Source: Flavonifractor sp. An112
GTDB lineage: Bacteria; Bacillota; Clostridia; Oscillospirales; Oscillospiraceae
DNA length: 64,000 bases
Direction of reading: 5' to 3'
Assembly (NCBI RefSeq): GCF_002161085.1
Contig: NZ_NFLU01000007.1
Location: forward strand, 1-64,000
Position numbers and translations under genes: made by a program
Notes under the pieces: model-generated
The model's input: only the letters and a program-made list of their open reading frames with translations
Told to the model about the DNA's origin: nothing
Databases searched by the model: none
Part shown: positions 50,991 through 53,221 of the stretch, piece after piece
Layout: each line of letters begins with the position of its first letter
How positions within the stretch are numbered: position 1 is the first letter of the stretch

Positions 50991-51234
50991 ACCTGTCGCA
51001 CCTCCCGGTCCAAATCTGTTTCCCATTGTAGCCGAAAATGGTCCGGCTGTAAAGGGGGCGGGGGAAAATTTATCAATCTTTAAGATGTTGGAAAGGAAAA
51101 TATCTGGTAGATGCAACCATTGGATGGGTGCTGTGGTATTATGGATACCAGAGGACCGGCGGGGCCTGTGCTTACGGGCATGAGCGCAGGAGGAATCGGC
51201 GGCCTCCGGATGCCCATAAGGGAGGAGAAAGACC

Positions 51235-51702
51235 ATGACGGACGAGCGGAAAGCCAGAGCTCAGGTGGAGCGCTGGGGAGATATGGTGTGGCGGCTGGCC
51301 CTGGCCCGCACTCGCCATATCCAGGACAGCGAGGATGTGTTCCAGGAGGTGTTTGCCCGCTTCTTCCGCCATGAGGAGGAGCTGGACAGCGATGAGCACC
51401 GGAAGGCCTGGCTGATTCGCTGTACCCTCAACTGCACCAACACCCTGCTGTCCGCTCGCTGGCGGACCCACCTGCCCCTGGAGGAGGCGGTGACAAAGGC
51501 CATGGAACCGGCGGATCGCACGGTCTATGAAGCAGTACTGTCCCTGCCAAAAAAGTACCGGACTGCCATTCACCTGCATTACTATGAGGGGTATTCGGTG
51601 GAGGAGATTGCTGCCCTCACCGGAGCCAAGACGGGCACAGTGAAAAGCTGGCTGTCCCGGGGGCGGGACCGGCTGTCTCAAGCACTGAAAGGAGACAAGT
51701 GA
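51235..51702 (+). CDS. ECF-family RNA polymerase sigma factor
   Basis: A 155-residue ECF sigma factor. Region 2 covers about 15-75 ([20 protein letters not shown]) and region 4 about 105-150 ([40 protein letters not shown]). GGGAGG lies eleven bases before the ATG. The next gene begins three bases after its stop, so the two are co-transcribed. That gene encodes a membrane-anchored serpin in the place of an anti-sigma factor. The regulon is unknown. Confidence 0.92.
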
Positions 51703-51704
51703 CC

Positions 51705-53180
51705 ATGATGAATGAATATAAACGGGCCAATGATACCCTCCATCCCACCCATTCCGCTGTGGAGCGGGCGGTGAGGGGGGAGGATTCCAAGAGAAAAGGA
51801 AGGCCGCTGAAAGCACTGGTGCCGGCGGGAGTGGCGGCTGTGGCAGCCGTAGCTCTGCTTATCACCGGTATCCCCGGCACGGACGGCGAGACCGGCGGCG
51901 GGCCATTGACAGGCAGCGCCTATGCCATTGCCTTGCCGGAGTACCCTGATCTGCCCAAGCACCCAGCTGAACCCCTGGGGGGCAGCGACGCGGAGTGGGA
52001 GCAATTCAATGCAGACCTGGATGTCTATCTGGACGCCTGGGAGGCCTACCAGGACGAGACCGTCAGCCTGCGTGACACCCCTGAGCTGACTGCCGCCCTG
52101 GCGGACTATACCGGCACCAGCGCCGCCCTGGCTCTGGCAGGGGAGGGCAACCGGGTCTATTCTCCCGTATCCCTGTGGTTTGCTCTGGCCATGCTGAGCG
52201 AGACTACGGACGGAGAAACTCAGCAGCAGATACTGGATGCTTTAGGGGCTTCCGATGTGAATCAGCTGCGGGAGTGGGCCGACATCCTGTGGCACACCCT
52301 CTACCTGGATGACGGCACCGCCGCCACTCTGCTGGGCATCTCCATCTGGCTCAGCGAGAAGTTAGACTTCCACCAGGACACCCTGGAGCGGCTGGCGGAG
52401 TACTATTATGCCGGCTCCTTCCGGGTCCCCATGGGTACCGGCGAGGCGGACAGAGCCATCACGGAGTGGGTATCGGAGCAGACAAAAGGCCTTATCGGCT
52501 CCGACGGCAAGGTGCTGACCACCAGGGCCGAGACTCTGGCGGTGCTGGCCTCCACCCTGTACTTCCAGGCCCGGTGGAGTGACGAGTTTGATCCCAGCCT
52601 CACGGCGGAGGATGTGTTCACCGCTGCGGATGGCAGCGAGACGACGGTGGACTTCATGCACATGACCCAGACTACCGGCTTTCTCCGCCAGAACGGCTAT
52701 CAGGCAGCCAGCCTGGGCACCACCGGCGGCACGATGACCTTTGTCCTCCCCGACGAGGGGGTCACCCCCGCCGAATTGCTGGCCAACCCGGATTTTCTGA
52801 CGGAACTCACCGATTCTGACAGCAAGATCTACGGCGAGGTCCAATGGTCGGTTCCCAAGTTCGACGTCAGTTCCGATCTGGATTTGATTCCTGCCCTGAC
52901 AGGTATGGGGATCACCGACGTGCTGTACAGGGGGACCGCCGACTTCACCCCCCTCGTCGACCTCACTCCGGTGTGGCTGGAAGAGGCCAGACAGATCGCC
53001 CGGGTGAAGGTGGACGAGGAGGGGGTGGAGGCCGCCGCCGTCACCCTGCTGGCTGCCGACGCCGAGGAGGCCATCGTGGAGGACCCCGCCATCTGCGTCA
53101 TGGATCTGGACCGGCCCTTCCTGTTCGTGATCCGGGACGGGGATGCCGTCCTTTTTGTGGGCGTGGTGGAGCAGGTATAA
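51705..53180 (+). CDS. Membrane-anchored serpin with anti-sigma-like N terminus
   Basis: A 491-residue protein. Residues 1-36 are cytoplasmic, with a short charged helix (MNEYKRANDTLHPTHSAVER) that resembles short anti-sigma N termini of this group; a membrane helix at about 37-56 follows; then a linker; and a full serpin domain from about 120 to the end. Serpin marks include STLYFQARWSDEFDPS, VDFMHMT, the hinge EEGVEAAAVT (438-447) and DRPFLFVIRDGDAVLFVGVV. By counting from P17 at E438, P1 falls at E454. It overlaps the promoter region of no other gene and is three bases after the ECF sigma gene. Confidence 0.88.
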   Translation: MMNEYKRANDTLHPTHSAVERAVRGEDSKRKGRPLKALVPAGVAAVAAVALLITGIPGTDGETGGGPLTGSAYAIALPEYPDLPKHPAEPLGGSDAEWEQFNADLDVYLDAWEAYQDETVSLRDTPELTAALADYTGTSAALALAGEGNRVYSPVSLWFALAMLSETTDGETQQQILDALGASDVNQLREWADILWHTLYLDDGTAATLLGISIWLSEKLDFHQDTLERLAEYYYAGSFRVPMGTGEADRAITEWVSEQTKGLIGSDGKVLTTRAETLAVLASTLYFQARWSDEFDPSLTAEDVFTAADGSETTVDFMHMTQTTGFLRQNGYQAASLGTTGGTMTFVLPDEGVTPAELLANPDFLTELTDSDSKIYGEVQWSVPKFDVSSDLDLIPALTGMGITDVLYRGTADFTPLVDLTPVWLEEARQIARVKVDEEGVEAAAVTLLAADAEEAIVEDPAICVMDLDRPFLFVIRDGDAVLFVGVVEQV

Positions 53181-53181
53181 G

Positions 53182-53216
53182 CACAGCCCCCGCGGCAAGA
53201 TGCCGCGGGGGCTGTG
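53182..53216. terminator. Strong GC-rich hairpin between serpin and cls genes
   Basis: CACAGCCCCCGCGGCA pairs with TGCCGCGGGGGCTGTG around AGA, a 16-base-pair stem. T-runs are weak on both sides, so termination may be partial. Confidence 0.6.
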
Positions 53217-53221
53217 TTCGT

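What the first reader, a model, noticed from the sequence alone, without database searches (positions are those of the whole stretch)
51235..53180. ECF sigma factor followed directly by a membrane-anchored serpin in the anti-sigma position
The sequence shows an ECF sigma gene and, three bases later, a gene with a short cytoplasmic helix, one membrane helix and a full serpin domain outside the cell. Established: ECF sigma genes are usually followed by membrane anti-sigma genes whose outer domains sense signals, and serpins undergo a large irreversible change when a protease cuts the reactive loop. Inference: cutting of the loop by a host or microbial protease could pull on or release the cytoplasmic segment and free the sigma factor, making a suicide-type protease sensor. 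Alternatively the serpin simply protects the cell and is controlled by the sigma factor. I do not recall a described case of such a pair.
Basis: partly seen in the sequence, partly recalled or inferred. Interest (0 to 1): 0.82.

Follow-up and report, generated by a model that had tools for sequence, protein, structure and literature searches.

The report
Serpin fused to anti-sigma switch
In this gut bacterium a protease-trapping protein (a serpin) sits on the outside of the cell with a tail inside that very likely holds a gene switch (an ECF sigma factor), so the cell could read protease attack directly; the same pairing recurs in related gut bacteria and we found no description of it.

Summary
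Window 51235-51702 encodes an ECF-type sigma factor; two bases later (51705-53180) comes a protein with a 36-residue N-terminus predicted to be cytoplasmic, one membrane helix, a flexible stalk and a complete serpin domain with an inhibitory-type hinge. It is no one-off. The same genome has a second such pair with a different sigma factor. Of 136 serpins examined from genomes of the family, 40 lie directly downstream of a sigma gene; this kind of N-terminus is seen in 5 of the other 96. The N-terminus follows the sigma factor, not the serpin domain (class match in 80 of 80 pairs; partial correlation 0.75), and resembles that of 5 of 10 sibling sigma-linked proteins with other outer domains. 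The serpin tree requires repeated switching between sigma-linked and unlinked forms. A conserved promoter, TGCAACC-N16-GGTATTAT, precedes the sigma gene; its exact core occurs once in the genome. Best reading: the serpin protein is the transmembrane anti-sigma factor of its own operon, probably a suicide protease sensor that replaces itself when consumed. The anti-sigma role is well supported by comparison; the protease trigger is inference. Searches of the held paper library found no description of it.

The parts
51112..51142 (+). putative ECF-type promoter of the operon, TGCAACC-N16-GGTATTAT (-35 / -10)
   Evidence: Strict form GCAACC-N15..17-GGTAT upstream of sigma in 17 of 22 named class-A loci and 0 times elsewhere in 274,203 strand-bases of those loci; TGCAACCN{15,17}GGTAT once in the whole own genome; of 15 sites of the shorter form in 4 congeneric genomes only the operon's site recurs in all 4.
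51235..51702 (+). ECF-type sigma factor, class A (P0001, 155 aa)
   Evidence: Pfam Sigma70_r2 and Sigma70_r4_2 over cut-off; TIGR02937 sigma70-ECF 67 bits over cut-off 42.9.
51705..53180 (+). single-pass membrane serpin, proposed anti-sigma factor (P0002, 491 aa)
51705..51812 (+). N-terminus predicted cytoplasmic, residues 1-36, proposed sigma-binding segment (YKRANDxLHPT...ERAV)
   Evidence: Class agrees with the sigma class in 80 of 80 pairs; profile finds 5 of 10 siblings; eroded where sigma is lost.
51813..51872 (+). membrane helix, residues 37-56
   Evidence: hydropathy maximum from residue 37; helix 41-53 in the model, low confidence
51873..51920 (+). Gly-rich juxtamembrane stalk, residues 57-72, least constrained part (dN/dS 0.63)
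   Evidence: pLDDT under 50 to residue 69
52140..53171 (+). serpin domain (Pfam match, residues 146-489)
   Evidence: PF00079 205.5 bits; fold match to tengpin, PAI-1, antithrombin and conserpin
53016..53045 (+). reactive-loop hinge P17-P8, EEGVEAAAVT (residues 438-447)
   Evidence: aligned to Conserpin-AATRCL EEGTEAAAAT; a loose hinge pattern is kept in 78 of 80 sigma-linked serpins
53046..53093 (+). reactive-loop bait region, residues 448-463; scissile bond by register Glu454-Glu455 (inferred)
   Evidence: register from the alignment; variable among orthologs, dN/dS 0.47; low-confidence loop 453-464 in the model
53180..53218 (.). strong 18-pair hairpin after the serpin gene, likely terminator region shared with the convergent gene
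   Evidence: -39.5 kcal/mol, z -7.7, 0 of 200 shuffles fold as well; no long T-run directly after it

Best explanation
The two genes are a sigma/anti-sigma operon in which the sensor domain of the anti-sigma factor is a serpin. The short cytoplasmic N-terminus (residues 1-36) holds the ECF sigma factor at the membrane [supported by comparison, not by binding data]. Outside, the serpin meets a protease of the host, a competitor or the cell itself. Freed sigma transcribes its own operon from the TGCAACC-N16-GGTATTAT promoter and so replaces the consumed serpin [motif shown, activity inferred].
For: Position and overlap: 40 of 136 family serpins directly follow a sigma gene, 24 of the 40 with a 4-base overlap. 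Second pair in the same genome with a different sigma class. N-terminal class agrees with sigma class in 80 of 80 distinct pairs. Partial Mantel N-terminus~sigma given serpin 0.75 (0 of 2000 permutations), serpin~sigma given N-terminus -0.05; holds at serpin identity under 90% and under 70%. A profile of 25 class-A N-termini finds 5 of 10 own-genome siblings, L033 at 1.1e-5 and L035, L050, L042, L043 at 0.0016-0.012, best of 500 shuffles 0.33; sibling L043 carries RsgI_M. Sister genome G022 lacks sigma and has an eroded N-terminus while promoter and serpin remain. Repeated switching on the serpin tree: 18 label changes, at least 10 forced by branches with support 95 or more. Loose inhibitory-hinge pattern in 78 of 80. 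Conserved, near-unique promoter. M50 site-2 protease in the genome, 191 bits.
Against: No binding, cleavage or expression data. The N-terminus and the sigma gene are physically adjacent, so linkage could give part of their co-variation. Within class A everything is co-inherited and the test says little (N~sigma 0.21, while serpin~sigma given N is 0.78); among the 15 class-B pairs under 50% serpin identity the signal vanishes (0.10, 519 of 2000). The class-A profile misses 5 of the 10 siblings (L034, L047, L052, L061, and L046 at 0.85), and the class-B profile finds no sibling in this genome better than a shuffle. The N-terminus matches no Pfam anti-sigma domain. L159 has the N-terminus but no sigma gene in the 2.2 kb upstream held, and L151 has sigma downstream instead. 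The G022 case is one event, and one deletion could have clipped both parts. The Glu-Glu at the register P1-P1' of this serpin is unusual beside its relatives.
Confidence: 0.62

Rival explanations
1. The serpin is only the protected output: sigma drives a membrane-anchored serpin, the N-terminus is merely an anchor, and a different protein is the anti-sigma factor.
For: Six other loci show sigma - separate protein with a hydrophobic helix - lipoprotein-type serpin, where the serpin is a neighbour and not the anti-sigma. Protease-induced serpin transcription through a separate system is known in Bifidobacterium breve (passages in PMC8012564).
Against: No further same-strand gene stands next to the pair: divergent IreB gene, promoter, sigma, serpin, hairpin, convergent gene; a distant anti-sigma gene cannot be excluded. 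In the six other loci the middle protein has, by eye, the class-B type N-terminus and the serpin lacks it. The N-terminus tracks sigma.
Confidence: 0.15
2. The serpin ectodomain is a sensor, but for a non-protease ligand (peptide, bile component, hormone-like molecule), using the serpin fold as a binding domain like the hormone-binding serpins.
For: Anti-sigma ectodomains are often plain ligand-binding domains (general knowledge); reactive loops vary and this one has Glu-Glu at the register P1-P1'.
Against: A loose inhibitory-hinge pattern is kept in 78 of 80 sigma-linked serpins, as in 119 of 126 unlinked ones, which is unexpected if trapping were not used.
Confidence: 0.12
3. Overload variant: the intact serpin shields its own stalk; signalling starts only when serpin capacity is exhausted and free protease cuts the Gly-rich stalk (site 1), not because loop cleavage itself signals.
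For: The stalk has low model confidence and is the least constrained segment (dN/dS 0.63).
Against: Nothing here separates it from direct triggering; 58 of the 74 linked serpins with the xYP landmark have an AxA motif just before it, but so do 30 of 60 unlinked ones.
Confidence: 0.2

Closest known systems
sigmaV/RsiV of Bacillus subtilis and Clostridioides difficile (lysozyme-sensing anti-sigma)
   Same: ECF sigma factor held by a membrane anti-sigma factor; lysozyme binding to it leads to signal-peptidase cleavage and regulated intramembrane proteolysis (abstract of PMC6066255; title and abstract start of PMC9044953 in a listing).
   Different: The outer domain here is a serpin, which would react irreversibly with proteases; no other Pfam family matches P0002 at E up to 1.
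SigI/RsgI of cellulolytic clostridia
   Same: One sigma/anti-sigma chassis with exchangeable outer sensing domains (passages in PMC3413522); RseP cleavage in the membrane helix (abstract start of PMC12203970 in a listing).
   Different: No RsgI domain in P0002; but a P0001-like sigma of the same genome is followed by an RsgI_M protein (L043).
RsiP / DUF4179 anti-sigma factors
   Same: One sibling here has a DUF4179 match below the cut-off (L061, 25.5 against 30.1 bits); RsiP is cut at site 1 by signal peptidase (title and abstract start of PMC8844934 in a listing).
   Different: Serpin instead of DUF4179.
Bifidobacterium breve protease-induced serpin (two-component system)
   Same: Proteases induce serpin transcription (passages in PMC8012564; the original paper is not held).
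   Different: Sensing there is by a separate two-component system next to the serpin operon; here the serpin itself would be the sensor.
Siropins and other gut bacterial serpins
   Same: Gut Clostridia serpins; siropins inhibit human neutrophil elastase and proteinase 3 (passages in PMC5127057).
   Different: Described as inhibitors; 'operon' and 'transmembrane' do not occur in that text, and the 'sigma' hits shown are the supplier. Whether siropin genes stand beside a sigma gene was not checked.

Membership tests
ECF (group IV) sigma factors | regions 2 and 4 present, no region 3 or 1 | tested here: met
   Sigma70_r2 and Sigma70_r4_2 over cut-off, no Sigma70_r3 among the 13 families listed
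ECF (group IV) sigma factors | own ECF-type promoter (autoregulation) | tested here: inconclusive
   conserved motif in 17 of 22 loci; activity not measured
transmembrane anti-sigma factors | gene directly downstream of and co-transcribed with the sigma gene | tested here: met
   2-base gap; sigma homologue in the flank of 14 of 15 genus orthologs; co-transcription itself not measured
transmembrane anti-sigma factors | cytoplasmic N-terminal segment, one membrane helix, outer domain | tested here: met
   (prediction only)
transmembrane anti-sigma factors | cytoplasmic segment related to that of other anti-sigma factors | tested here: inconclusive
   profile finds 5 of 10 own-genome siblings, E 1.1e-5 to 0.012, best shuffle 0.33; the siblings' own anti-sigma role is inferred, except that L043 carries RsgI_M
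transmembrane anti-sigma factors | binds and inhibits the cognate sigma factor | not testable with these tools
   needs two-hybrid or reporter assay
RsiV / RsiP families | DUF3298/DUF4163 or DUF4179 ectodomain (names recalled, DUF4179 also in PMC6066255's section list) | tested here: not met
   only Serpin matched at E up to 1
RsgI family | RsgI_N / RsgI_M domains | tested here: not met
   only Serpin matched
serpin superfamily | serpin domain over the curated cut-off and serpin fold | tested here: met
   205.5 bits vs 27; Foldseek best E 4.9e-31
inhibitory serpins | hinge P17-P9 ExGTEAAAA (motif as given in PMC8233489) | tested here: met
   EEGVEAAAV; P14 Val for Thr and P9 Val for Ala differ
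inhibitory serpins | forms covalent complex with a protease | not testable with these tools
   needs purified protein
regulated intramembrane proteolysis pathway | site-2 protease in the genome | tested here: met
   PF02163, 191 bits; its action on P0002 not testable here

The most novel reading that the evidence does not exclude
A consumption-coupled homeostat: one protein is the trap, the sensor and the main product. Each protease molecule trapped destroys one anti-sigma molecule, frees one sigma factor and thereby orders its own replacement, so transcription counts protease hits on the cell surface. This device was assembled convergently several times in gut Clostridia by joining serpins to unlike sigma/anti-sigma modules.
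Probability: 0.4. Interest if true: 0.92.

Novelty: new variant of a known kind. Interest (0 to 1): 0.78.

Why it matters
[quoted passage not shown] A serpin built into an anti-sigma factor would give a signalling role to many gut serpins, would be a bacterial sensor of proteases such as those released in gut inflammation, and would add an irreversible, stoichiometric sensor class to the sigma/anti-sigma systems. It is cheap to test with a reporter and a purified domain.

Tried and rejected
Chance neighbourhood: rejected by the census (40 of 136 serpins) and the genus data.

Signal-peptide artefact: here 36 residues precede the hydrophobic stretch, whereas in unlinked serpins it mostly starts at residue 2-25. 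My automatic anchor call was crude: it labelled 7 sigma-adjacent proteins 'lipo' because of a Cys inside the membrane helix, and by my reading it mis-started L028 and L093; I therefore went by the N-terminal profiles and by inspection. Those profiles include membrane-helix columns and also hit some signal peptides weakly (lipoprotein L122_2 at 1.9e-6 with the class-B profile), so the segment pattern was judged by eye as well.

Signal-peptidase site (AxA) as a mark of sigma-linked serpins: 58 of 74 linked but also 30 of 60 unlinked proteins that have the landmark, so a lead only.

Promoter motif for class B: a loose pattern gave scattered hits in 3 class-B loci (L137, L110, L088) and none in the other class-B loci.

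Class-B N-terminus in own-genome siblings: not found above shuffles.

Papers PMC3457475 and PMC7826278 are not held, so the B. breve paper and the ECF classification paper were not read. PMC3990059 lists serpins in a cellulosome gene table, PMC12484212 as cellulosome protease inhibitors (passages); in PMC10059941 serpin and ECF sigma stand apart (passages).

Rows dropped or not taken: matches that were fragments and one cut at a contig start (G165:C150) were not fetched; 6 of 142 serpin ORFs were dropped (3 duplicates, 3 fragments); 4 of 84 pairs with identical serpin domains; 2 of 80 pairs with short sigma cores. In one search four 'controls' with low E-values (ctl_L036_14, ctl_L050_11, ctl_L043_9, ctl_L046_22) are, or by their locus and score appear to be, the sibling genes read from another start.
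Full report
WHAT IS THERE. Window 51235-51702 (+) encodes a 155-residue sigma factor with regions 2 and 4 only, the ECF pattern. After two bases (not three) an ATG at 51705 opens a 491-residue protein: 36 mostly polar and basic residues, one hydrophobic helix from residue 37, a Gly-rich stalk, and a serpin domain (PF00079, 205.5 bits, residues 146-489). The AlphaFold2 model (46 sequences, mean pLDDT 80) is confident for the serpin and under 50 for nearly all of residues 1-69; the 50 PDB rows shown are serpins or serpin-derived by title, led by tengpin, PAI-1 and antithrombin. The reactive-loop hinge EEGVEAAAVT aligns with the inhibitory hinge of Conserpin-AATRCL. The two genes stand alone: upstream a divergent IreB gene, downstream a -39.5 kcal/mol hairpin and a convergent phospholipase-D-family gene.

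IT RECURS. The same genome has a second serpin with the same layout behind a different sigma gene (L001, 4-base overlap; Pfam). Serpins occur in 107 of 200 sampled genomes of the family. I took the listed full-length matches (30 loci and 99 regions; fragments and one match cut at a contig start, G165:C150, left out): 142 serpin open frames, 136 after dropping 3 duplicates and 3 fragments. Forty of 136 start within -14 to +27 bases of the end of a sigma gene, 24 of them with exactly a 4-base overlap. Their N-termini are of two kinds: class A, as here (YKRANDxLHPT...; 6), and class B (MKxEDLfdaIgeiDdel...; 34). Five further proteins have such an N-terminus without a sigma gene directly upstream: L120_25 (second of two serpins in one operon), L151 (a sigma gene directly downstream; its first ATG is about 13 bases after the serpin stop), L152 (contig edge), L159 (no sigma in the 2.2 kb upstream) and L140 (below). 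None of the other 91 is directly behind a sigma gene, though for 5 of these 91 less than 600 bases upstream was held; by inspection most begin with a signal peptide, often with a lipobox. In six loci the order is sigma, a separate protein with, by eye, a class-B type N-terminus, then a lipoprotein-type serpin.

In a wider draw of 398 genomes of the phylum 75 have serpins; of the 80 serpins in the 74 loci that I took from it (74 of 80 with at least 600 bases upstream) 4 are sigma-adjacent. So the arrangement is common in this family and rare but present outside it.

In the genus, 15 of 20 genomes (own included) carry an ortholog of this serpin (58-100% identical to P0002 over the aligned part); 14 of the 15 have the sigma homologue in the flank held.

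THE N-TERMINUS BELONGS TO THE SIGMA FACTOR. I took the sigma-adjacent pairs of the family and named sets (84; 80 after removing identical serpin domains). The class of the N-terminus agrees with the class of the sigma factor in 80 of 80 (25 A, 55 B). Distances of N-terminus and sigma correlate given serpin distance (0.75; 0 of 2000 permutations), whereas serpin and sigma do not given the N-terminus (-0.05). Within class B: 0.38 (1 of 2000) against -0.07; within class A all three parts are co-inherited and the test says little (0.21, 9 of 2000, with serpin~sigma given N at 0.78). After thinning to serpin identity under 90% (74 pairs) and 70% (54) it stays at 0.76 and 0.67, and in class B at 0.43 (52 pairs) and 0.42 (46); at under 50% it is 0.80 for all 18 pairs but 0.10 (519 of 2000) for the 15 class-B pairs, too few to decide. 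Physical linkage is a partial alternative reason for the co-variation.

The ten strongest paralogs of P0001 in the genome are followed by proteins with one predicted membrane helix and other outer domains. A profile of the class-A N-terminus without the membrane helix finds five of the ten (L033 at 1.1e-5; L035, L050, L042, L043 at 0.0016-0.012), the best of 500 shuffles reaching 0.33; L046 scores 0.85 and L034, L047, L052 and L061 are missed, and the class-B profile finds no sibling better than a shuffle. Of ten proteins scanned with Pfam (seven of these siblings and the middle proteins of L006, L026 and L028), one has RsgI_M, one a DUF4179 match below the cut-off, eight nothing. So the serpin occupies the sensor place of what looks like a modular sigma/anti-sigma chassis.

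The sister genome G022 is a natural test. Its syntenic serpin (L140) has no sigma gene; the promoter and what look like the sigma gene's ribosome-binding site and first codons remain, directly before a serpin whose N-terminus has shrunk to MMDKDALRPDPSAVRDKKRKPLK, while membrane helix and serpin are kept. One event only, and one deletion could have clipped both.

REPEATED SWITCHING. On a quick LG+G4 tree of the 136 serpin domains (44 of 133 inner branches under 80 support) the label 'sigma-type N-terminus' changes 18 times, at least 10 of them forced by branches with SH-aLRT 95 or more (shuffled mean 38). Class A alone needs at least 3 changes; L105 groups with unlinked serpins, and L084 lies inside an otherwise unlinked clade of 50. 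Gain and loss are not told apart.

PROMOTER. TGCAACC-N16-GGTATTAT lies at 51112-51142. The strict form GCAACC-N15..17-GGTAT is upstream of sigma in 17 of 22 named class-A loci and nowhere else in 274,203 strand-bases of them; the genus loci show it in 14 of 15, G022 included, the miss having only 448 bases upstream. TGCAACCN{15,17}GGTAT occurs once in the own genome. With the 11-base form four congeneric genomes give 15 sites against 6 for the reversed control; only the operon's site recurs in all four, while two other sites recur in two genomes each. The resemblance of TGCAAC to SigM/SigV -35 elements is recalled, not from a call. I infer autoregulation with a very small regulon; sites that deviate from the pattern would be missed.

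SELECTION AND LOOP. In 12 orthologs dN/dS is 0.35 for residues 3-27, 0.22 for the membrane helix, 0.63 for the stalk 57-72, 0.31 for the serpin body, 0.47 for loop residues 448-463, and 0.14 for sigma (10 sequences); pS is 0.25-0.59, so some sites near saturation. A loose hinge pattern is kept in 78 of 80 linked and 119 of 126 unlinked serpins, so linked serpins have not visibly lost the trap. By register P1-P1' is GA, AG or AA in 35 of 80 linked serpins and P1 is Gly, Ala or Ser in at least 52 of 80, which suggests elastase-like proteases (inference); this one has Glu-Glu.

HOW IT MOST LIKELY WORKS. Shown: gene order, predicted architecture, recurrence, co-variation, conserved promoter motif, kept hinge, an M50 site-2 protease in the genome. 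Inferred: residues 1-36 bind and silence the sigma factor; protease attack on the outer serpin starts intramembrane proteolysis; released sigma refills the serpin pool. The nearest model is RsiV, where lysozyme binding makes the anti-sigma factor a signal-peptidase substrate (abstract, PMC6066255). I put about 0.8 on the anti-sigma role, about 0.6 on protease as the trigger, and 0.4 on the full self-replacing homeostat.

WHAT IS KNOWN. Searches of the held open-access library gave no description of a serpin as, or joined to, an anti-sigma factor in the listings and passages that I saw: serpin + sigma factor + anti-sigma (9 papers), serpin + ECF sigma (3), two or more of serpin / anti-sigma factor / Clostridi / protease sensing (10 of 1,131 listed), four or more of serpin / sigma factor / gut / membrane-anchored / operon (10 of 75 listed), Flavonifractor + serpin (8 of 20 listed), anti-sigma factor + serine protease inhibitor + regulated intramembrane proteolysis (2); also on gut serpins. 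Most subscription papers are not in that library. The serpin phylogeny paper classes some prokaryotic serpins as membrane anchored but reports no trend between placement and localisation, and 'sigma' and 'operon' do not occur in its main text (passages). Membership: an ECF sigma factor, yes; a serpin with an inhibitory-type hinge, yes; a transmembrane anti-sigma factor by position and predicted topology, with binding untested; not a member of the RsiV, RsiP or RsgI families, whose ectodomains it lacks.

Noticed in passing
L001 1495-3518 (G000:C6, own genome): A second sigma-serpin pair, class B, with a 4-base overlap in the same genome.
   Followed up: yes
L006, L011, L026, L028, L069, L073: Sigma - separate protein with a class-B type N-terminus (by eye) - lipoprotein-type serpin; a possible fusion precursor or a split form.
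   Followed up: partly
L151 2326-4235 (coordinates on the reverse strand): Reversed order: a serpin with the class-B N-terminus followed at once by a sigma gene.
   Followed up: no
L033, L034, L050 (own genome): Proteins with one membrane helix directly behind P0001-like sigma genes whose outer domains match no Pfam family at E up to 0.01: uncharacterised candidate sensors.
   Followed up: partly
window 53180-53218: Very stable 18-pair hairpin between the serpin gene and a convergent phospholipase-D-family gene, without a long T-run.
   Followed up: partly
L310, L311, L313, L317 (other families): Four sigma-adjacent serpins outside the window's family; three share a different N-terminus with PETLAETDL, the fourth looks like class B.
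   Followed up: no
L063 (G104:C4): One long open frame (1267 residues from the chosen start) with two serpin matches in tandem.
   Followed up: no
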